A stretch of 9,374 nucleotides of DNA from Candidatus Scatomorpha stercorigallinarum (lineage in GTDB: Bacteria; Bacillota_A; Clostridia; Oscillospirales; Oscillospiraceae), in the NCBI GenBank assembly GCA_018713375.1, contig DVOV01000081.1, forward strand, positions 1-9,374, read 5' to 3'. The notes under the pieces are model-generated. The model did no database searches and was not told the origin of the DNA. It worked only from the letters and a program-made list of their open reading frames with translations. Each line of letters opens with the position of its first letter. Within the stretch, counting starts at the first letter, position 1. Shown here one piece after another: positions 3 through 7,382 of the stretch. A program made the translations under genes and the position numbers.

Positions 3-35
3 TTTCAGGGCCATTTCAGGTCGGCGCGCTATCCT
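3..35 (+). promoter_or_regulatory. Direct-repeat promoter of the first two-component operon
   Basis: Two perfect TTTCAG hexamers lie at 3-8 and 14-19, an 11-bp period. After exactly 10 bp comes TATCCT (30-35), a four-of-six match to the -10 consensus. No good -35 hexamer is present, as expected for an OmpR/PhoB-type activated promoter in which the repeat replaces the -35. The same arrangement precedes the second regulator and the ABC operon. The predicted transcript start would fall at or next to the GGGAGG ribosome site (42-47), giving a leader of only about 13 nt. Sequence before base 1 is not available. Confidence 0.6.
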
Positions 36-54
36 TGATGCGGGAGGGAACTTC

Positions 55-732
55 ATGAGGATACTGATCGCGGAAGACGAGGCCAGCATCGCCCGGGCGC
101 TGAAGGTCATGCTGGAAAAGAACAAGTACACGGTGGACATGGTACACAACGGCGCGGACGCGCTCGAACACATAATGTCGTCCGTGTATGACGCGCTGGT
201 GCTGGACATCATGATGCCCGGCATGGACGGCATCGAGGTGCTGACCACCGCGCGGGCGCAGGGCGTAACGGCGCCGGCGCTCTTCCTCACCGCCAAGGGC
301 GAGGTGGAGGACCGCGTCGCGGGGCTCGACGCCGGGGCGGACGACTATCTGCCCAAGCCCTTCGCGGCCAGCGAATTCCTGGCGCGGGTGCGCGCCCTCG
401 TGCGGCGCAGCAACGCCTGGGCGCCGGCGGTGCTCAGCTTCGGCGGCGTGGAGCTTGACTGCGACCGGTACATCCTCCGGGTGGGCGGCGGCGAGACCCG
501 GCTCAACAACAAGGAATACCAGCTCATGGAGCTCTTCATGCGCCACCCGCGGCAGGTGTTCTCCACCGCGCGGTTGATGGAGAAGGTCTGGGAGCTGAAC
601 TCCGAGTCGGACATGGACGTGGTGTGGACCTATATCGGCTTCCTGCGGCGCAAGCTGCGGCAGCTGGGCGCGGACGTTGAGATAAAGACCATCCGCGGCG
701 CGGGCTATGTATTGGAGCGGGCGGGATGCTGA
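55..732 (+). CDS. OmpR/PhoB-family response regulator (first pair)
   Basis: This is a DNA-binding response regulator of 225 residues, the usual length for the family. The receiver domain covers about residues 1-118. Acidic residues D8 and E9 follow the opening MRILIAEDE, the phosphoacceptor is D51 within LVLDIMMPG, the switch threonine is T79 and the conserved lysine is K101 in the KPF motif. A winged-helix DNA-binding domain follows (about 126-223), with the typical RGAGYVL end. The start is the ATG at 55, preceded by GGGAGG at 42-47. The kinase gene downstream begins inside its last codons (ATGCTGA overlap), so the two are translationally coupled and very probably cognate. The TTTCAG direct repeat directly upstream fits autoregulation, which is inferred. 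The signal and regulon cannot be named from sequence, so no gene symbol is given. Confidence 0.96.
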   Translation: MRILIAEDEASIARALKVMLEKNKYTVDMVHNGADALEHIMSSVYDALVLDIMMPGMDGIEVLTTARAQGVTAPALFLTAKGEVEDRVAGLDAGADDYLPKPFAASEFLARVRALVRRSNAWAPAVLSFGGVELDCDRYILRVGGGETRLNNKEYQLMELFMRHPRQVFSTARLMEKVWELNSESDMDVVWTYIGFLRRKLRQLGADVEIKTIRGAGYVLERAGC

Positions 733-1871
733 AGCGTATGTCCCGGCGCTTTATAGGCGCGGCCATGGCGGCCATAACGGCGGTGGTACTCGTGCTGCTC
801 TGCTGCCTGAACCTGTGGAACTACCGCGGCGTCGCGGACCAGCTCGACAGCACGCTGGACCTGCTCGCCGCGGCGGACGGGAGCTGGCCGGACTTTGCCC
901 TCCAGCAGCCGGCGCCGCCGCGCGGCGGCGGGCCCTTCTCCGGCGAGATGCCGTACATGATACGCTTTTTCGCCGTCCACTACGACGCCGGCGCGCTGGC
1001 GGGCGGCCGGACGCGCGGCTTTTACAAGGGCTACCGCTACCTCGTCCGCGGGGACGGCGGGGCGAAGAGCGTCATCTTCCTCAACGCGGAGCGCGAGCTG
1101 GGCGCGGTGCGCAGCCTGCTCGCCACGACGGCGGCGGTGGCCGCGCTCTGCCTCGCGGCGGTATTCATACTGGTGCTGCTGCTCGCGCGCCGGGCCGTCA
1201 AGCCCTATATGCGCAACCTGGAGATGCAAAAGCAGTTCATCACCAACGCCGGGCACGAGCTCAAGACCCCCCTGACGGCGATATCCACCAGCGCCGACGT
1301 GCTGGCGCTGGATCTGGGGGACGACGAGTGGGTGCGCAACATCCAGACGCAGAGCGCCCGGCTATCGAAGCTGGTCGCCGGGCTGGTGACGCTCTCGCGC
1401 CTGGACGAGGAGGACCCCCTGCCGGAAAAGGCCCGCTTCTCCCTCAGCGACGCGCTCTGGGAGGCCGCCGACCCCTTCGCCCCGCTGATAAAGGCCGGGG
1501 GCAAGTCCTATTCGCAGCGCATCGAGGATGGCCTCACCGTGACCGGCGACCGCGCCGCCGTGCAGCAGGTGGTGAGCATACTGCTCGACAACGCCGTCAA
1601 ATACTCGCCCGAGGGCGGCGAGATAAGCCTGCGCGCCTTCCGCAGCGGCAGGAGGGCCGTCATAGAGGTGTACAACACCTGCGAGGGCCTTGATGAAACG
1701 GACCTGGAGCGGCTTTTCGACCGCTTCTACCGCGCCGACAAGTCCCGTTCCGGCGCGGTAAAGGGCAGCGGCATCGGCTTCTCCATCGCGAAAGCCGCGG
1801 TCGAGGCCCACGGCGGCAGGATACGGGCCGAAAAGAGCGCGCACGGCATAATGTTCCAGGTGACGCTGTAG
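726..1871 (+). CDS. Sensor histidine kinase (first pair)
   Basis: This membrane sensor kinase of 381 residues is the probable partner of the regulator encoded just upstream. Membrane segments lie at about residues 11-30 and 131-153, enclosing an extracytoplasmic sensor of about 100 residues. The HisKA domain carries the H-box AGHELKTPL with phospho-accepting H177. The catalytic domain has an N-box with N289 (LLDNAVKYS), an F-box LFDRFYR and a glycine loop GSGIGFSIAK. The G1 position reads VYNTCEGLDE, with asparagine where the textbook DxGxG aspartate would stand. I recall similar forms in related clostridial kinases, so it is probably active. The sensor is compact: the segment between FFAVHYD and YRYLV is shorter than in relatives I remember. 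The start ATG overlaps the regulator stop and has GGAG at 714-717. An alternative ATG lies at 738. The ligand is unknown. Confidence 0.95.
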   Translation: MLKRMSRRFIGAAMAAITAVVLVLLCCLNLWNYRGVADQLDSTLDLLAAADGSWPDFALQQPAPPRGGGPFSGEMPYMIRFFAVHYDAGALAGGRTRGFYKGYRYLVRGDGGAKSVIFLNAERELGAVRSLLATTAAVAALCLAAVFILVLLLARRAVKPYMRNLEMQKQFITNAGHELKTPLTAISTSADVLALDLGDDEWVRNIQTQSARLSKLVAGLVTLSRLDEEDPLPEKARFSLSDALWEAADPFAPLIKAGGKSYSQRIEDGLTVTGDRAAVQQVVSILLDNAVKYSPEGGEISLRAFRSGRRAVIEVYNTCEGLDETDLERLFDRFYRADKSRSGAVKGSGIGFSIAKAAVEAHGGRIRAEKSAHGIMFQVTL

Positions 1872-1879
1872 AATGTCCC

Positions 1880-1918
1880 GCCCCGGCACGGCGTGGCGCT
1901 CGGGGCCCGCAGTTTTTT
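1880..1918 (+). terminator. Possible weak terminator after the first kinase gene
   Basis: GCCCCG (1880-1885) can pair with CGGGGC (1901-1906) around a 15-nt loop, and a run of six T follows at 1913-1918. The six-base gap between stem and T-run and the short stem make this imperfect. The T-run overlaps the first TTTCAG hexamer of the next operon's promoter. Read-through into the second operon is possible. Confidence 0.35.
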
Positions 1919-1948
1919 CAGTTTCATTTCAGCTTTGGGGTGTATGAT
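1916..1948 (+). promoter_or_regulatory. Direct-repeat promoter of the second two-component operon
   Basis: Perfect TTTCAG hexamers lie at 1916-1921 and 1927-1932, an 11-bp period. Exactly 10 bp later comes TATGAT (1943-1948), a five-of-six match to the -10 consensus. Spacing is identical to the site at 3-35 and to the - strand site at 7350-7382. The predicted start near 1955 would leave a leader of about 10 nt before the ATG at 1965, which is unusually short. Confidence 0.65.
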
Positions 1949-1964
1949 CAGTCTGGTGAATCAT

Positions 1965-2636
1965 ATGAACATACTGGTGATAGAAGACGAACAGCTCCTC
2001 AGCGGGTCGCTCCGCGAACTCCTCGCTCAGCACGGCTTTGCCGCCGAGGCGGCGTATGACGGGCCGCTGGGGCTGGAGCTCGCCCTCACGGGCGTCTACG
2101 ACCTCATCATTCTCGACGTGATGCTTCCCGGCATGGACGGCTATGAGATCGCGCGGCGGCTGCGCTCGAAGCGCGTGGGGACGCCGATACTGATGCTGAC
2201 GGCGCGCTCGGGGCTCGACGACCGCGTGGAGGGCCTCGACGCCGGGGCCGACTACTACCTCGCCAAGCCCTTCGAGACGCGCGAGCTCCTGGCCTGCATC
2301 AACGCCATACTGCGCCGCCAGGGCGCGCAGGTGGAGGAGCTCAGATACGGCGACGCGGCGCTCGACCTCGCCTCGGCGGAGCTGGTGCGCGCCGAGCGGC
2401 GCGTGCGCCTCTCGGCACGCGAATTCGAGCTGGCGCGCTGCCTCTTTTCGGCCGGCGGACGCATCGTCAGCAAGGAGACGCTGCTCGTCAAGGTCTGGGG
2501 CTGGGAGAGCGAGGCGGTGGAGAACAACGTCGAGGTCTACGTCGGCTTCCTGCGCAAAAAGCTCGCTGCGCTCGGCTCGAAGGTAAAAATAAAGGCCCAG
2601 CGCTCGCTGGGCTACCACCTGGAGGCGGGGACATGA
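1965..2636 (+). CDS. OmpR/PhoB-family response regulator (second pair)
   Basis: This is a second DNA-binding response regulator, 223 residues from the ATG at 1965. The frame stays open upstream to a GTG at 1893, but the canonical receiver opening MNILVIEDE begins at 1965. GGTGA lies six bases before that ATG, and the upstream extension would run through the promoter repeats, so 1965 is preferred. The receiver domain has D8, phosphoacceptor D51 in ILDVMLPGMDG, T79 and K101. The winged-helix domain (about 128-222) ends in RSLGYHLE. It is clearly a paralogue of the regulator at 55-732 but quite diverged from it. Its stop codon overlaps the start of the kinase gene (ATGA), so they form a coupled pair. 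Its promoter shares the TTTCAG repeat architecture, so autoregulation or cross-regulation between the two pairs is plausible but inferred. Confidence 0.95.
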   Translation: MNILVIEDEQLLSGSLRELLAQHGFAAEAAYDGPLGLELALTGVYDLIILDVMLPGMDGYEIARRLRSKRVGTPILMLTARSGLDDRVEGLDAGADYYLAKPFETRELLACINAILRRQGAQVEELRYGDAALDLASAELVRAERRVRLSAREFELARCLFSAGGRIVSKETLLVKVWGWESEAVENNVEVYVGFLRKKLAALGSKVKIKAQRSLGYHLEAGT

Positions 2637-3868
2637 TAAAGCGCCTGCGGCTCAAATTCGTGGCCATCAACATGACGCTCGTCACGCTGCTGCTCTGCGT
2701 GATACTCGGCCTCGTTTACTACTCCACGGCGGCGGATCTTGAGACCGACTCCATAAACATGCTGCGCAGCGTGGCCCTCAACCCGCCGCGGCCCGCCCCG
2801 GGCGAGGCGGCGGAGGACGTGCAGCTGCCCTTTTTCGCCGTGCTGCTGGGCCCGGACGGCGGCATCGCCGAGGCCGCCGGCGGCTACTTCGACCTCACGG
2901 ACGCCGAGGCGCTCGCGGAGCTGGTCAGCGAGGCCGTGGGCTCGCCGGGCGACATCGGCGTCGTCCCCGGGCGCGCGCTGCGCTTTTACCGGGCCGACCT
3001 GCCGGGGCGCCATGTTATCGTCTTTGCGGACATCTCCAGCGAGCAGGCCACGCTCGCGGGCCTTGTGCGCACCTGCGCCGTCATCGGCGCGCTGGGCTTC
3101 CTCGCCTTCCTCGCGCTGAGCGTCGCCCTCTCGCGCTGGGCCGTGCGGCCCGTCGAAAAGGCCTGGCGCGAGCAGAAGGACTTCGTCGCCGCCGCCTCGC
3201 ACGAGCTCAAGACGCCGCTGACGGTCATCATGACCAGCGCCGAGCTCGCCGCGCCCTCCAGGCAGACGGAACGCATACAGTCCGCCGCCGGGCGCATGAA
3301 GGCGCTCATCGAGCAGCTCCTGGCCCTCGCGCGGGCGGAAAACGAGGGCGAAAAGGCCGGTGGCGGGCCGGCCTGCCTCAGCGCGGCCGTCGAAAACGCG
3401 GTCATGGAGTTCGAGCCGCTCTGCTTTGAGAGCGGCCACGCGCTCACGAGCGAGATAGCGCCGGGCATAAATGTGCGGGGGGACGCCGAGGCGTTCACGC
3501 AGCTGGCGGAGATATTGCTCGATAACGCCGTCAAATACTCGCGCCCCGGCGGTGATATCGCCGTCACACTGAGGGCCATGGGCCCGCGCCGCTGCGCCCT
3601 CACGGTCGCCGACGAGGGCGAGCCGATAGAGCAGGAGGAGCTCGCGAATCTCTTCAAGCGCTTCTACCGCGCCCCCCGGCACCGGCAGGCCCAGGACGCC
3701 GCTTCGCGCGCCGCGGGCGAAAGCCTGCCTTGCCGGCAGGAGCAGCCCGCGGGCTTCGGCCTCGGGCTGGCCATCGCCGAGAGCATATGCAAGCGCGCCC
3801 GCGGCAGGATACGCTGTGAGAGCGCGGACGGCTGGAACCGTTTCACCGTCGAGCTGCCAAGGGCATAG
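2633..3868 (+). CDS. Sensor histidine kinase (second pair)
   Basis: This is a 411-residue membrane sensor kinase coupled by an ATGA overlap to the regulator upstream, with GGAGG at 2621-2625. Membrane segments are at about residues 9-30 and 147-169, with an extracytoplasmic sensor of about 115 residues between. The H-box is ASHELKTPL with H190. The N-box is LLDNAVKYS with N298, the G1 region ADEGEP keeps the aspartate, the F-box is LFKRFYR (to R346), and the glycine loop is GFGLGLAI. The ATP lid between FYR and the glycine loop is unusually long: about 27 residues (347-373) against about 10 in the neighbouring kinase. The insert is rich in Ala, Arg and Gln, and its DNA holds CCGGCAGG twice. 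Core residues are intact, so it is probably an active kinase. The signal is unknown. The gene ends within the first 36-bp terminator repeat. Confidence 0.94.
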   Translation: MIKRLRLKFVAINMTLVTLLLCVILGLVYYSTAADLETDSINMLRSVALNPPRPAPGEAAEDVQLPFFAVLLGPDGGIAEAAGGYFDLTDAEALAELVSEAVGSPGDIGVVPGRALRFYRADLPGRHVIVFADISSEQATLAGLVRTCAVIGALGFLAFLALSVALSRWAVRPVEKAWREQKDFVAAASHELKTPLTVIMTSAELAAPSRQTERIQSAAGRMKALIEQLLALARAENEGEKAGGGPACLSAAVENAVMEFEPLCFESGHALTSEIAPGINVRGDAEAFTQLAEILLDNAVKYSRPGGDIAVTLRAMGPRRCALTVADEGEPIEQEELANLFKRFYRAPRHRQAQDAASRAAGESLPCRQEQPAGFGLGLAIAESICKRARGRIRCESADGWNRFTVELPRA

Positions 3869-3898
3869 CAAAAGCCGGCCGGGAGACCCGGCCGGCTC
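3863..3898. repeat. 36-bp direct repeat, copy 1 (stop codon plus terminator)
   Basis: This 36-bp stretch is identical to 5787-5822 and in the same orientation. It starts with GCATAG, supplying the last alanine base pattern and TAG stop of the gene before it, continues through AAAA and holds the whole hairpin described separately. The two copies bracket the aldo/keto reductase and LysR genes. Confidence 0.9.
3873..3897 (-). terminator. Strong hairpin terminator between convergent genes
   Basis: AGCCGGCCGGG (3873-3883) pairs perfectly with CCCGGCCGGCT (3887-3897) around an AGA loop, an 11-bp stem. Read on the - strand it is followed by TTTTGC and lies six bases past the reductase stop, so it terminates that gene. 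On the + strand it follows the second kinase gene by four bases, but the next bases are CAATTG rather than a T-run, so termination of the kinase operon here may be weaker. Confidence 0.85.
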
Positions 3899-3903
3899 AA
3901 TTG

Positions 3904-4770
3904 TTATTCGTGTATCTTCATATTGCACAAGGCCTTGACAAAAGCGGGGTCGTCGTGGTCGACGATCTCGCTGTGCCCCAGGTCCTTGGCCGCAACGGCG
4001 GCCATTTCATCGTCCGTCAACGTAAAGTCCCAAATGTCAATGTTCTGCTCCATGCGCTCTACATGGACGGATTTGGGTATCACGGAGACGCCGCGCTGCG
4101 TGTTCCAGCGCAGGACGACCTGCGCGGCGCTTTTGCCGTACTTTGCGCCGATCTCCGTCAGGACGGGATCGGTGAAGATGCCGTGCTTGCCCTCGGCCAG
4201 CGGGCCCCAGGCCTGGGGCGCTATGCCATAGGCGCGCATATTGGCTATCGCCTTCTCCTGGGCGAAGAACGGGTGCAGCTCCACCTGGCAGACGGCGGGG
4301 ACGGCCTCCACCGTCTCACAGAGGTTAGTGAGCGGACCGGGGTAGAAGTTCGCCACGCCAACGGCGCGCGTCAGGCCCTCTTTATGCGCGCGCTCAAGAC
4401 CGCGATAGGCCGCGAAATAGTCGCCCATCGGCTGGTGCAGCAAAACAAGGTCGACATAGTCGAGCCCCAGCCTGCCGAGCGACGCCCTGACGGCCTCACA
4501 GGCCGAGTCCTCGTCCCTGTGGTCCTGCACCCAGGTCTTGGTGGTGATGAAGAGTTCCTCCCGCGATACGAGCCCGTCCGCGATCGCGCGCGATATCGCC
4601 CGGCCGACGGCCTCCTCGTTGTAATACGCCGCCGCCGTGTCGATCAGGCGGTAGCCGGTGCGGATGGCGTCGTAGACCACGCGCTCGCACTCCGCGTGTT
4701 CAGGGATCTGGAACACGCCGAAGCCCTCAAGGGGCATTTTCGCGCCGGTGTTCAAAGTGACATACTCCAT
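3904..4770 (-). CDS. Aldo/keto reductase (diketogulonate-reductase-like)
   Basis: This is a soluble NAD(P)H-dependent oxidoreductase that reduces carbonyl groups. Its length (288 residues) and sequence fit the short bacterial branch related to 2,5-diketo-D-gluconate reductases. The catalytic tetrad is complete: D44 and Y49 in GYRLIDTAAAYYNE, K78 in TTKTW, and H112 in LLHQP. The IPKSV motif near residue 231 is the usual cofactor phosphate-binding site. The start ATG at 4770 is preceded on the - strand by GGAGG with seven-base spacing. It is transcribed divergently from a LysR-type gene, a common arrangement in which the regulator controls the enzyme. That link is inferred. The physiological substrate cannot be read from sequence, because members of the family are promiscuous. 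It ends six bases before a strong hairpin. Confidence 0.94.
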   Translation of the reverse strand: MEYVTLNTGAKMPLEGFGVFQIPEHAECERVVYDAIRTGYRLIDTAAAYYNEEAVGRAISRAIADGLVSREELFITTKTWVQDHRDEDSACEAVRASLGRLGLDYVDLVLLHQPMGDYFAAYRGLERAHKEGLTRAVGVANFYPGPLTNLCETVEAVPAVCQVELHPFFAQEKAIANMRAYGIAPQAWGPLAEGKHGIFTDPVLTEIGAKYGKSAAQVVLRWNTQRGVSVIPKSVHVERMEQNIDIWDFTLTDDEMAAVAAKDLGHSEIVDHDDPAFVKALCNMKIHE

Positions 4771-4869
4771 GGCAATTCCTCCGTATCCGCCTCTTGCGCG
4801 GCGCCGCTATTCCTGATATGATGAACAGCGGTGAGCCGGCAAGCGGCCTAAAATATTTTTCACGCCTCT

Positions 4870-4899
4870 ATAATAGGCCGTTTTGGGGCAAAAGTACAA
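4870..4899 (-). promoter_or_regulatory. Promoter of the aldo/keto reductase gene
   Basis: Read on the - strand, TTGTAC (4899-4894) and TATTAT (4875-4870) are separated by 18 bp, a reasonable sigma-70/sigma-A pair. It gives a leader of about 90 nt. The candidate LysR site at 4881-4893 lies inside its spacer. Confidence 0.5.
4881..4893. promoter_or_regulatory. Candidate LysR-type operator (T-N11-A)
   Basis: TTTTG-GGG-CAAAA is a 13-bp inverted repeat that fits the T-N11-A pattern bound by LysR-family regulators. It lies in the spacer of the reductase promoter and over the -35 region of the regulator promoter, where one protein could control both directions. The arms are only five bases, so this is suggestive. 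Confidence 0.4.
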
Positions 4900-4910
4900 T
4901 GCTAAAGGTG

Positions 4911-4916
4911 TATAAT
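4911..4916 (+). promoter_or_regulatory. -10 element of the LysR-type gene
   Basis: A perfect TATAAT lies 33 bases before the ATG at 4950. No recognisable -35 is found 16-18 bp upstream, where the sequence overlaps the candidate operator. This is consistent with a regulator-dependent or weak promoter. Confidence 0.45.
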
Positions 4917-4949
4917 ACTATAAATTGAAATCATACTGAGGTGGAGGTC

Positions 4950-5792
4950 ATGGATCTATACGAGCTGCGGCAGCTGGCGGCTTTTGCCGAGCGCGGCACG
5001 CTCTCTGCCGCTGCGGAGACGCTGCATCTCTCGCAGCCAGCGCTCAGCCGGAATATGAAAAAGCTGGAGGAGGAGCTGGGTGTGGCTCTCTTCGAGCGGC
5101 GGAAAAACCGCCTGGCACTGAATGAAAACGGCGAGTATGTCCTCCGCATCGCCCGGGAACTGCTGTCCTCGGCGGACGGGCTGCCGGCGAGGGTGCAGGA
5201 ATTCGACCGCAGGCACCGCGCTATTACTGTCGGCCTCTGTGCGCCTGCCCCCGGCTGGCTGCTGACGCCGCTGCTGAGCAGCATTTATCCCGGCCGCATG
5301 CTGCAAACAGAGATTTTGCCGTGGAACAAGCTGCTCGAGGGGCTCGACAGCGGGCGTTTCCAGCTGGCTGTCCTCGCGCGCGAGCCGGAGAGCGGGCGCT
5401 ATTTCTCGCGCGAGTGCGGGCGAGAGTCGCTGATGTTCGCCCTGCCCCCCTCTCACAGGTTTGCCCGGCGCGAGAGCCTCTCTTTTGCGGACATGGACGG
5501 CGAGACCATGCTGCTGATGGACGATATCGGCTTCTGGGACTTCGTGCGCACGGAGAAGCTTCCGCACACGCGATTTTTGATGCAGAATGACCCCGCCGAC
5601 TTCAACGAGCTCATCGCCTCTTCGACCCTGCCCTCCTTCACGACGGATCTCGCGAAAAAATACCTCGGCGGCGGCGCGGGCCGCGTCGAGGTGCCCATCT
5701 CTGACCCGGAGGCGTCGGTGACGTATCGCCTTGCCTGCCTGCGGGAAAATCGGGGCAAATACCGCGCGCTGTTTTCAGCGCTGGATGCATAG
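4950..5792 (+). CDS. LysR-type transcriptional regulator
   Basis: This is a DNA-binding regulator of 280 residues, slightly short of the usual 290-300. The N-terminal winged helix-turn-helix (about 1-60) is canonical: MDLYELRQLAAFAE, then LSAAAETLHLSQPALSRNMKKLEEELGVALFER. An effector-binding domain follows from about residue 88, with a typical LPSFTTDLAKKY stretch near its end. The frame allows a GTG start at 4941, but the ATG at 4950 gives the standard family N-terminus and has GAGGTGG at 4938-4944, so it is chosen. It is divergent from the aldo/keto reductase, which is its likeliest target. Inferred role: control of that gene in response to a small metabolite. Its stop codon lies in the second copy of the 36-bp repeat. 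The co-inducer is unknown. Confidence 0.93.
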   Translation: MDLYELRQLAAFAERGTLSAAAETLHLSQPALSRNMKKLEEELGVALFERRKNRLALNENGEYVLRIARELLSSADGLPARVQEFDRRHRAITVGLCAPAPGWLLTPLLSSIYPGRMLQTEILPWNKLLEGLDSGRFQLAVLAREPESGRYFSRECGRESLMFALPPSHRFARRESLSFADMDGETMLLMDDIGFWDFVRTEKLPHTRFLMQNDPADFNELIASSTLPSFTTDLAKKYLGGGAGRVEVPISDPEASVTYRLACLRENRGKYRALFSALDA

Positions 5793-5822
5793 CAAAAGCC
5801 GGCCGGGAGACCCGGCCGGCTC
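5787..5822. repeat. 36-bp direct repeat, copy 2 (stop codon plus terminator)
   Basis: This copy is identical in all 36 bases and in orientation to 3863-3898; the two start 1924 bp apart. As in copy 1, it contains the TAG stop of the + strand gene before it and a perfect hairpin. Confidence 0.9.
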
Positions 5823-5826
5823 TTTT
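5797..5826. terminator. Bidirectional hairpin terminator between convergent genes
   Basis: The same 11-bp perfect stem as the earlier copy (arms 5797-5807 and 5811-5821, loop AGA) is followed on the + strand by C and a run of six T ending at 5828, a good terminator for the LysR gene. On the - strand it lies five bases past the DUF4340 stop and is followed by TTTTGC, so it serves that gene as well. Confidence 0.88.
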
Positions 5827-6762
5827 TTATCCGAGCACGACGGCGTTGACCGCTTCGATGAGGTCTACGGCCTGGCTTCTCGGCACATAGCCGATGCCCT
5901 CGCCGTCCACCTCGGCGTAGCAGCTCTCGCCGTCCGCGCGGTAGAGGCTCAGGGCGATCTCATCGCCGGAAGCGAGCGTGGCGCGGAGGCTTATCTCCTC
6001 CTCGCCGGAGGCCCCGCCGCCGTCGAACCGGCTGGCGGAGAGCGCCGCGAGCGCGGTGCTGATGTCCGTGACGCTCGTCTCTTCGCCTTCATAGTACCAC
6101 TGCGTCCCCTCGTCCTCCGCCTCCGCGCCCTCGGGCGGCGTGGTGGTGAACTCATAGGTCCCGCCGTCGAGCGTGACGGAGAGGCTCGCGACGTCCTCCA
6201 CCTCCGCCGGGAAGATCTCCGTGTGCCGGAGGTCGTCGTAGGAGCACGCCATGATGGCCTTGAAGGTGTCGTAGCCGATCTCGTAGATGATGGCGCTCTC
6301 GCCCACGCGCAGGTAGGCGACGGCGTCCTCGTCCGTGGGCTCGGCGGTCTCCTCGGCGTCCTCGGACTCCTCCTCCAGGGCCGCGAGCACCTCGTCCCAG
6401 TCCGTGAGCTTATCCGTGGCGCTGCGGGAGAAGGATATCGTGAACGTGAGTATTTCCGCATCCTCCTCGCCGGACTCGGGGTAGTCTATGGTGACGGTGA
6501 GCTCGGGCTCGTCAAGGCCGGTCTCGGCCAGGTCGGCCTCCGTGGCGTCGTAGGTGTAATAGTCCTCAAGGCCGAGGGCGGCGATATAGGTGACAAAGTC
6601 GTTGACGCTGTCCGTGTCCAGCACCTCGCCGTTTTCCGTGTAGTAGACGTCGCCGGCGCGGTAGCTGCCGCCGTTTTCGTCGCGCTCTATCACGTAGTTC
6701 TCCGCGCCGGAGAACTCCACGCGCTCAACATCGACGAAGGCCGGTATCGTGTCGTCGAGCAT
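5827..6762 (-). CDS. DUF4340-family protein, N-terminally truncated
   Basis: This acidic protein segment has up to 311 residues from the first ATG. It resembles the later part of DUF4340 proteins, which in Clostridia usually follow an ABC ATPase, an ABC-2 permease and a GldG-like auxiliary protein. Full-length members begin with a membrane anchor and an earlier repeat of the domain. Neither is present here. The opening MLDDTIPAFVDVERVEFSG looks like an internal stretch of such proteins, so its Met is probably not a real start, and no ribosome site precedes it. Residues about 125-150 form a Glu/Asp/Thr-rich low-complexity linker. The reading frame overlaps the broken end of the ATPase gene in another frame. 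As it stands this is likely a 5'-truncated gene or an artefact of assembly. Recognition of the family rests on memory and is moderately sure. Confidence 0.7.
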   Translation of the reverse strand: MLDDTIPAFVDVERVEFSGAENYVIERDENGGSYRAGDVYYTENGEVLDTDSVNDFVTYIAALGLEDYYTYDATEADLAETGLDEPELTVTIDYPESGEEDAEILTFTISFSRSATDKLTDWDEVLAALEEESEDAEETAEPTDEDAVAYLRVGESAIIYEIGYDTFKAIMACSYDDLRHTEIFPAEVEDVASLSVTLDGGTYEFTTTPPEGAEAEDEGTQWYYEGEETSVTDISTALAALSASRFDGGGASGEEEISLRATLASGDEIALSLYRADGESCYAEVDGEGIGYVPRSQAVDLIEAVNAVVLG

Positions 6763-7319
6763 ATGAGCACGGTGCGGCTCTCGCCGAGCTGGCCGATGAG
6801 CGCGCGTATCTCCAGTATCTGGATGGGGTCGAGGCCGACGGTCGGCTCGTCGAGTATCACCGTGTCCGGCTCGCCGAGCAGGGCCTGGGCGATGCCCACG
6901 CGCTGGCGGTAGCCCTTGCTGAGCGCGGAGATGCGGCGGTTTTTCATGTCGCCGATGCCCGTCTCGTCGATGACGGAGGCCATCTGGCGCTTCAGCTCCG
7001 CGCCGCGCAGCCCCTTGGCCTCGCCGACGAAGCGCAGATACTCCTCCGGCGTCTCACCCAGATAGAGCGGCGGCTGCTCGGGCAGGTAGCCCACGCGCCG
7101 CTTGGCCTCGCGCGGGTCTTCATAGATGTCATAGCCGGAGATCTTCACCGTGCCGCGCGTGGCGGAAAGGCAGCCGGTCATGATGTTCATGGTGGTGCTC
7201 TTCCCCGCCCCGTTGGGCCCCAGGAAGCCGTAGACCCCCGCGCCCGCTATCTCGAAGCTGAGGTCGTCCACCGCCGTCACCGCGCCGTAGCGCTTGGTGA
7301 GATGTTCAACTTGCAGCAT
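6690..7319 (-). CDS. ABC transporter ATP-binding protein, C-terminally truncated
   Basis: This is the nucleotide-binding subunit of an exporter-type ABC system (GldA/CcmA-like class). The start at 7319 gives MLQVEHLTKRYG and has AGGAGG at 7331-7326. The frame stays open further upstream, but that part crosses the promoter. Visible motifs are Walker A GPNGAGKS (34-41), Q-loop Q82, signature LSKGYRQR (133-140), Walker B VILDEP (154-159) and D-loop GLD (162-164). The sequence is normal to about residue 187 (SRTVLI). There an STH H-loop should follow, but the frame instead reads about 20 unrelated residues, from about residue 188 to a stop at 6690. The H-loop histidine and the C-terminal part are missing, so the product should not be functional. 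The break coincides with the start of the DUF4340 segment. It is expressed, if at all, from the TTTCAG-repeat promoter. Confidence 0.88.
   Translation of the reverse strand: MLQVEHLTKRYGAVTAVDDLSFEIAGAGVYGFLGPNGAGKSTTMNIMTGCLSATRGTVKISGYDIYEDPREAKRRVGYLPEQPPLYLGETPEEYLRFVGEAKGLRGAELKRQMASVIDETGIGDMKNRRISALSKGYRQRVGIAQALLGEPDTVILDEPTVGLDPIQILEIRALIGQLGESRTVLICSTTRYRPSSMLSAWSSPARRTT
6757..6768. other. Probable deletion or assembly junction inside an ABC operon
   Basis: On the - strand the ATPase coding sequence is recognisable up to about 6762, and DUF4340 coding sequence is recognisable from 6762 onward in a different frame. The junction itself reads GAGC-ATAT-GAGC on the + strand, a small direct repeat. 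The rest of the ATPase, a permease, a GldG-like gene and the DUF4340 N-terminus would normally lie here. Confidence 0.65.
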
Positions 7320-7349
7320 ACAATGCCTCCTTGCGTAGTTGCTGCGGTC

Positions 7350-7382
7350 ATTGTACAACGCGAAGCTAAAACTAACCTGAAA
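7350..7382 (-). promoter_or_regulatory. Direct-repeat promoter of the ABC/DUF4340 operon
   Basis: Read on the - strand, TTTCAG (7382-7377) and TTTTAG (7371-7366) have an 11-bp period. Exactly 10 bp further comes TACAAT (7355-7350), a five-of-six match to the -10 consensus. This repeats the spacing of the two regulator promoters. The leader to the ATG at 7319 is about 24 nt and contains an ideal AGGAGG (7331-7326). Confidence 0.65.

What the first reader, a model, noticed from the sequence alone, without database searches (positions are those of the whole stretch)
3..7382. Three promoters share one TTTCAG-N5-TTTCAG-N10-(-10) design: a possible local regulon
Seen: at 3-35 (+), 1916-1948 (+) and 7382-7350 (-), two TTTCAG or TTTTAG hexamers with an 11-bp period are followed after exactly 10 bp by TATCCT, TATGAT or TACAAT. 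The sites sit before both response-regulator operons and the ABC/DUF4340 operon, and I see none before the reductase, LysR or MATE genes. Known: OmpR/PhoB-family regulators bind direct repeats with an 11-bp period, and pho boxes lie about 10 bp upstream of the -10. Inference: one or both regulators here recognise TTTCAG repeats and control themselves, each other and the ABC system.
Basis: partly seen in the sequence, partly recalled or inferred. Interest (0 to 1): 0.72.

Follow-up and report, generated by a model that had tools for sequence, protein, structure and literature searches.

The report
Shared operator of two gut regulators
A repeated DNA word in front of three operons of a gut bacterium is very probably the landing site of its two-component regulators, which appear to switch on themselves and a neighbouring membrane-transport operon; the design resembles the known CiaR system of streptococci, with one letter of the word changed.

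Summary
No own genome is held, so relatives were tested. In the nearest genus, 9 of 13 genomes hold 14 sites, 0 for the pattern read backwards; 14 of 14 precede RR2 (7) or the ABC ATPase (7). In 250 family genomes: 123 sites, 4 backwards; 84 precede a response regulator, kinase, GldA-like ABC, Cthe_2159, VTC, HtrA or HlyD gene. In an order sample 24 of 32 N10 sites and 0 of 16 N9/N11 sites do. Unseeded positions repeat with the 11-bp period. Geometry and recognition helix resemble streptococcal CiaR (TTTAAG-N5-TTTAAG, ten bases to the -10; PMC3091779), with TTTCAG for TTTAAG. RR1 orthologues in genomes without RR2 keep a TTTCAR box, so RR1 probably reads the same class. Binding, direction of control and cross-regulation are untested, and the window's ABC operon is internally deleted. 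New variant of a known kind.

The parts
3..35 (+). Box 1: half-sites 3-8 and 14-19, -10 element 30-35, before the RR1-HK1 operon
   Evidence: similar boxes before RR1 orthologues
55..732 (+). RR1, OmpR-type response regulator (receiver + Trans_reg_C); recognition-helix stretch DVVWTYIGFLRRKL
   Evidence: PF00072, PF00486; helix read in the translation, same stretch in orthologues
726..1871 (+). HK1, sensor histidine kinase
   Evidence: HisKA, HATPase_c
1916..1948 (+). Box 2: half-sites 1916-1921 and 1927-1932, -10 element 1943-1948, before the RR2-HK2 operon
   Evidence: box (TTTNAG twice, at most 1 mismatch) before 9 of 9 RR2 orthologues of at least 60% identity in the genus
1965..2636 (+). 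RR2, OmpR-type response regulator; recognition-helix stretch NNVEVYVGFLRKKL
2633..3868 (+). HK2, sensor histidine kinase
7350..7382 (-). Box 3: half-sites 7382-7377 (TTTCAG) and 7371-7366 (TTTTAG), -10 element 7355-7350, before the ABC ATPase
   Evidence: orthologous boxes
6756..7319 (-). ABC transporter ATPase, GldA-like, cut off at its C-terminal side by a junction at about 6756-6762
5827..6762 (-). C-terminal part of a DUF4340 protein; the relative in L123 is 490 aa, here about the first 174 aa are missing

Best explanation
The three sequences are operators for a CiaR-like clade of OmpR-family response regulators. Each is a tandem half-site, TTTCAR-N5-TTTCAR (here with one TTTTAG), whose 11-bp period puts two DNA-binding domains side by side on one face of the helix. 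The second half-site ends exactly 10 bp before the -10 element, so the bound dimer occupies the place of a -35 box and should recruit RNA polymerase (activation). Phosphorylated RR2 reads boxes 2 and 3: it activates its own RR2-HK2 operon and the convergent neighbour operon, which in intact relatives is ABC-ATPase/permease/GldG-like/DUF4340. RR1, encoded next to it, most likely reads box 1 and activates RR1-HK1; because box 1 is a perfect match to the RR2 consensus in this window, cross-activation is plausible. The regulon is very small (1 to 4 sites in the family genomes that have any) and most classified targets are envelope or cell-surface genes. Shown here: sites, conservation, spacing, target genes. 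Inferred: binding, phosphorylation dependence, activation, which protein reads which box.
For: Genus: 9 of 13 genomes, 14 places, 0 control places; 14 of 14 before RR2 (7) or the ABC ATPase (7) (L166 and L173 read by eye). Order of G001: 37 of 295 genomes, 48 places, 1 control place; N10 sites: 24 of 32 before RR (14), ABC (4), HtrA (2), HlyD (2), VTC (1) or HK (1) genes; N9+N11: 0 of 16 places, one of them not judgeable. Freeing the gap to the -10 (N2-N20, TATNAT): 27 places, 2 control places; 9 of 27 at N10, no other gap more than 3 (hand count). Family: 72 of 250 genomes, 123 places, 4 control places; 84 of 123 before the gene classes named, 57 of them RR, HK or ABC, the classes that the window itself predicts. 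20 of 24 genomes with an N10 site carry an RR2 relative (E<=1e-52) against 59 of the other 271, p=2e-9. Among regulators in loci fetched by protein search only, the box (<=1 mismatch) precedes 6 of 6 with at least 80% identity to RR2, 9 of 12 at 60-80%, 18 of 60 at 46-60%, 0 of 62 below 46% (3 RR1-like ones apart); upstream regions read backwards gave 1. Positions not used in the search repeat with the box: T at +8 (72%) and +19 (70%) in 54 sites, which are partly related to each other; a third TTCA core lies at -11 in 9 of 54 and at most in 2 at any other offset from -45 to -6. CiaR geometry and helix: PMC3091779 passages.
Against: No binding or expression data exist here. 36 of 123 family sites precede none of the gene classes tested, one has only a weak hit and 2 could not be judged, so some are chance or other targets. 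The looser first scan of 10 relatives gave 13 places but also 3 control places. Several RR2 relatives with 54-67% identity show no clear box (L002, L006, L007, L084, L241, L242, L244). Gene classes other than RR, HK and ABC were defined after seeing the first sites, and their reference proteins are counted among the 84. RR1 and RR2 have different recognition helices, so one box class for both is not fully explained. The genomes bear no stated completeness.
Confidence: 0.85

Rival explanations
1. RR2 alone reads all three boxes: a top-level regulator that controls itself, the RR1-HK1 operon and the ABC operon.
For: Box 1 of the window fits the RR2/ABC consensus perfectly. RR2 has the CiaR-like helix VEVYV...RKKL, RR1 has VVWTYI...RRKL. 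In G306, with an RR1-like protein (56%) and no close RR2, no box was found.
Against: In G791, G739, G814, G292, G611 and G700 no RR2 relative above 43% identity was found, yet RR1 orthologues in four of these keep a box at -53 to -60, and further boxes precede Cthe_2159 or VTC genes.
Confidence: 0.25
2. The boxes bind the regulators as repressors, or the sites are a mix of activated and repressed promoters.
For: CiaR itself represses one operon, manLMN (PMC8317062 passages). Many OmpR-family proteins do both (recalled).
Against: The box ends exactly 10 bp before a -10-like hexamer and occupies the -35 region; no -35 hexamer can be read at 17 bp because those positions are box letters (by inspection). 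This is the arrangement used to find CiaR-activated promoters.
Confidence: 0.1
3. The hexamers are part of a promoter class for an alternative sigma factor, without a response regulator.
For: Fixed distance to the -10; two family sites precede sigma-70-like genes.
Against: Two, and sometimes three, in-phase copies with an 11-bp period; co-occurrence with RR2-type genes, p=2e-9; the commonest target is a regulator gene itself; TTTAAG copies in relatives match a known OmpR-family operator.
Confidence: 0.03
4. Chance resemblance of three promoters.
For: Short words; one half-site is TTTTAG.
Against: 0 of 200 shuffles; conservation before orthologues; 123 against 4 control places.
Confidence: 0.01

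Closest known systems
CiaRH two-component system of streptococci (CiaR box TTTAAG-N5-TTTAAG)
   Same: Direct repeat with N5 spacer, second half-site ten bases before the -10, feedback on its own expression, htrA among targets (PMC3091779 and PMC8317062, passages). Recognition helix VVEVYVSKVRKKL against RR2 NVEVYVGFLRKKL: 9 of 13 positions equal (by eye). Some RR2 relatives carry TTTAAG boxes.
   Different: Half-site TTTCAG instead of TTTAAG; hosts are gut Clostridia; targets include ABC/DUF4340, VTC-DUF4956 and Cthe_2159 genes; 1-4 sites per family genome that has any, against 15 CiaR promoters in S. pneumoniae. Whole-protein orthology with CiaR was not tested.
PmrA/BasR (NF007928, PDB 4s04 and 8jo2)
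   Same: OmpR-family regulator with a tandem-repeat operator of similar period (box consensus recalled, not looked up); RR2 matches the chains over nearly its whole length.
   Different: RR2 scores 162.5 bits against a cut-off of 330; half-site and targets differ.
PhoB and the pho box
   Same: OmpR family, 11-bp direct repeats upstream of the -10 (recalled).
   Different: RR1 183.3 and RR2 160.8 bits against a cut-off of 296.2; the target classes found are not phosphate-uptake genes, though VTC (polyphosphate polymerase family, recalled) is among them.
GldA/GldF/GldG-type ABC systems
   Same: Relative L123 has ATPase, ABC-2 permease, ABC_transp_aux (PF09822) and DUF4340 genes in a row.
   Different: The window's ATPase scores 222.6 against the GldA cut-off of 402.6 and is truncated; gliding in such Clostridia is not known to me (recalled).

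Membership tests
OmpR/PhoB-family response regulator | Receiver domain PF00072 | tested here: met
   RR1 and RR2, 101.6 bits each, cut-off 30.2
OmpR/PhoB-family response regulator | C-terminal winged-helix domain PF00486 | tested here: met
   RR1 75.6, RR2 63.8 bits, cut-off 26.2
CiaR | Direct repeat of hexamers with N5 spacer, ten bases before the -10 | tested here: met
CiaR | Half-site TTTAAG | tested here: not met
   window has TTTCAG/TTTTAG; TTTAAG only before some distant relatives
CiaR | Recognition helix VVEVYVSKVRKKL | tested here: inconclusive
   RR2 9 of 13, RR1 6 of 13 positions equal to the helix printed in PMC3091779 (compared by eye)
CiaR | Orthology of the whole protein with streptococcal CiaR | not tested
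   no CiaR sequence was fetched; no CiaR model is among the 25 of 37 NCBIfam models listed for RR2
CiaR | htrA in the regulon | tested here: inconclusive
   HtrA-like trypsin+PDZ genes follow the box in some relatives; none in the window
PhoB | Score above the NCBIfam equivalog cut-off (TIGR02154) | tested here: not met
PmrA | Score above the NCBIfam equivalog cut-off (NF007928) | tested here: not met
Response-regulator operator | Specific binding by the regulator | not testable with these tools
   needs purified protein

The most novel reading that the evidence does not exclude
An undescribed regulon of gut Clostridia: a CiaR-like operator, TTTCAR-N5-TTTCAR-N10, ties two tandem paralogous two-component systems to a small interchangeable set of surface genes of unknown role (ABC/DUF4340, VTC-DUF4956, Cthe_2159, HtrA, HlyD), which would place these families in one envelope-stress or surface-polymer response. 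The paralogues RR1 and RR2, with different recognition helices but nearly one operator, would be a natural case for how cross-talk arises or is avoided.
Probability: 0.5. Interest if true: 0.6.

Novelty: new variant of a known kind. Interest (0 to 1): 0.47.

Why it matters
It gives uncultured gut Clostridia a concrete, testable regulon with exact operators, and it links protein families whose roles are poorly known (DUF4340/GldG-type ABC, VTC-DUF4956, Cthe_2159) to one signalling system. The same N10 rule can be used to look for the targets of this regulator clade in other genomes.

Tried and rejected
Own-genome scan: no genome held for the window; relatives were used. Rfam: no match at gathering threshold in the window. 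PhoB/pho box as the closest known system: rejected on model cut-offs and because CiaR has the same N5/N10 geometry. Sites with N9 or N11: treated as background, 0 of 16 places before the gene classes, although L089 from the scan (N9) and 4 regulators (N9) are exceptions.

Scan of the inter-repeat gap N0-N15 in the order of G005: 108 of 295 genomes matched, but the control also had about 73 places (hand count). In the places listed (the list was cut), N5 had 19 by hand count against 2, 3 and 4 for N4, N7 and N8, 7 for N11 and 9 for N13; the codon-phase gaps N3 and N6 had 18 and 20. N5 stands out only against out-of-phase gaps, so this scan is weak evidence.

Boxes in RR1-only and genus genomes: 21 places in 10 of 11 genomes, 2 control places; besides RR1, RR2, ABC, Cthe_2159 and VTC genes there were misses: L329 precedes a kinase-like reading frame 190 bp away, L333 no long frame, L334/L336 and L337 frames without a family or not scanned.

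Papers: no paper of the held library contains the written-out motif in the four spellings tried, none contains DUF4340 together with 'two-component'; the listing for CiaR homologues in Clostridia and the one for VTC/CotH/Cthe_2159/DUF4956 gave nothing on this box (listings only); the listing for TTTCAG with response regulators was followed up only for PMC7726353, and PMC2879425; both were looked at in passages, which do not describe this box. The protein search with RR2 gave no informative names in the 120 rows listed. In one search the box search missed L176-type RR1 boxes because their -10 starts with GA.

Rows dropped before counts: from the 84 I left out the weak regulator hit L392 (90 bits, 243 bp away); weaker hits (L358, L372, L407, L382) fell below the 60-bit limit. 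The first tally was redone with stricter rules, sequence downstream of the box only.
Full report
What was claimed. Three promoters of the window share TTTCAG-N5-TTTCAG-N10-(-10), and the two response regulators may read it.

The pattern TTTYAG-N5-TTTYAG-N10-TANNNT is found at 3-35 (+), 1916-1948 (+) and 7382-7350 (-), and in 0 of 200 shuffles. The downstream genes are two OmpR-type response regulators with their kinases and an ABC ATPase. No whole genome is held for the window. The best of the 80 RR2 relatives kept from genome contigs is from Candidatus Scatomorpha stercoravium, 87% identical, a genus of the Clostridia.

The motif is a rare and precisely placed element in relatives. A first scan of 10 genomes with RR2 relatives, gaps N9-N11 and TTTYAG, gave 13 places in 8 genomes and 3 control places. 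In the genus of the nearest relative, 9 of 13 genomes have 14 places, 0 for the pattern read backwards. All 14 lie before RR2 (7) or the ABC ATPase (7), with start codons 18 to 33 bp after the -10 (L166 and L173 were read by eye). In 295 genomes of the order, TTTCAG with gaps N9-N11 gives 48 places in 37 genomes, 1 control place. Split by gap, 32 places are N10, 7 N9 and 9 N11. Of the 32 N10 places 24 precede a regulator (14), ABC ATPase (4), HtrA-like (2), HlyD (2), VTC (1) or kinase gene (1); of the 16 others none does, one of them having too little sequence to judge (two identical N9 places counted once there). When the gap may be 2 to 20 and the -10 is TATNAT, there are 27 places and 2 control places; 9 of 27 have gap 10 and no other gap has more than 3 (hand count). 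In 250 genomes of the family, TTTCAR-N5-TTTCAR-N10-TANNNT gives 123 places in 72 genomes and 4 control places. Of these 123, 84 precede a regulator (38), ABC ATPase (18), Cthe_2159 (12), HlyD (6), VTC (5), HtrA (4) or kinase gene (1); 36 precede none of these classes, one has a weak regulator hit that I did not count, and 2 had too little sequence. Only the regulator, kinase and ABC classes (57 of 123) were predicted by the window; the other classes were defined from the first sites seen, and their reference proteins are among the counted sites. Some of the uncounted sites carry other surface or stress genes: of ten such frames scanned, one is a subtilase, one a PpiC-type foldase, one a VTT-domain protein, one an NPCBM-associated protein, two are sigma-70-like, one has a weak beta-helix match and three match no family.

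The repeat is longer than the seed. In 54 distinct TTTCAG sites, some closely related, positions that the search left free show T at +8 (72%) and +19 (70%), 11 bp apart, and C-T-T (64, 55 and 70%) after the second half-site. A third half-site core, TTCA, lies exactly 11 bp upstream in 9 of 54 sites, and at no other offset from -45 to -6 in more than 2. This is what side-by-side binding of identical domains would leave.

Who reads it. 20 of 24 genomes with an N10 site have an RR2 relative at E<=1e-52, against 59 of the other 271 (p=2e-9). Using only loci fetched by protein search, the box (at most 1 mismatch) precedes 6 of 6 regulators with at least 80% identity to RR2, 9 of 12 at 60-80%, 18 of 60 at 46-60% and 0 of 62 below that; backwards it was found once. 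In distant members the box reads TTTAAG-N5-TTTAAG or mixed. RR1 orthologues (65-94% identity) carry a box TTTCAR-N5-TTTYAR 52-60 bp before the start in L175, L176, L178, L295, L296, L297 and L298, and not clearly in L299; L300 had too little sequence. Among less similar RR1 relatives (48-57%) no such placed TTTCAR box was seen. Six genomes with RR1 but no RR2 relative above 43% identity still have boxes, before RR1 itself in four of them (G791, G739, G814, G292), and elsewhere before Cthe_2159 genes (G739, G611, G814, G700) or VTC-DUF4956 (G292). So both regulators most likely read this class of box; whether they also read each other's is open.

How it works. The second half-site ends 10 bp before the -10, so a bound dimer covers the -35 region; no -35 hexamer is present there. 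This is the arrangement of streptococcal CiaR promoters, for which TTTAAG-N5-TTTAAG with the -10 at distance ten was used as search pattern and the recognition helix is given as VVEVYVSKVRKKL (PMC3091779, passages read). RR2 has NVEVYVGFLRKKL. A review reports feedback of CiaRH on itself and htrA among its targets (PMC8317062, passages). I therefore infer activation from the -35 region by phosphorylated RR2 (and RR1), autoregulation, and control of a neighbouring envelope operon. Binding and direction of control are not shown.

Setting of the targets. In G310 and G316 the RR2 box and the ABC box lie 6.7 kb apart and face each other; G305 has the same order at 6.9 kb. In the order sample, 6 of 8 genomes with two N10 places have them within 2.1 kb on one contig (G203, G124, G161, G242, G080, G065). 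It is mostly a local regulon.

Limits. The genomes bear no stated completeness, and most that are named are assembled from metagenomes. The gene classes rest on Pfam or phmmer matches. The window's own ABC operon is deleted inside, so box 3 may today drive a broken operon. Several counts are hand tallies of printed lists, as marked.

Verdict. Very probably a real, conserved operator of a CiaR-like regulator clade; new half-site and new targets, known kind of mechanism.

Noticed in passing
6756-6762 (junction between ABC ATPase and DUF4340 fragments): About 3.2 kb present in the relative L228 (ATPase end, ABC-2 permease, GldG-like gene, DUF4340 start, as annotated in L123) are missing in the window. 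G313 (L232) has a different ATPase/DUF4340 junction and in G307 (L227) similarity to the ATPase ends near L227:1104; either recurrent loss or assembly error.
   Followed up: partly
3863-3898 and 5787-5822: Two identical 36-bp terminator-like stretches flank the aldo-keto reductase and LysR genes, which lie between the convergent RR2-HK2 and ABC operons in the window; in L228 and L234 these operons are adjacent. Looks like an insertion next to a terminator.
   Followed up: partly
L323, L326, L327, L330 and others: The box precedes genes for Cthe_2159-type surface proteins in 12 of 123 family sites; together with VTC-DUF4956 this suggests a shared surface function.
   Followed up: partly
L419, L425: Two sites precede sigma-70-like proteins, a possible second tier of control.
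   Followed up: no
Upstream regions of L236-L264: Half-sites drift between TTTCAG and TTTAAG (and a CTTGAG-like form in L245) along the regulator family while N5 and the gap to the -10 mostly stay; useful for mapping recognition residues.
   Followed up: no
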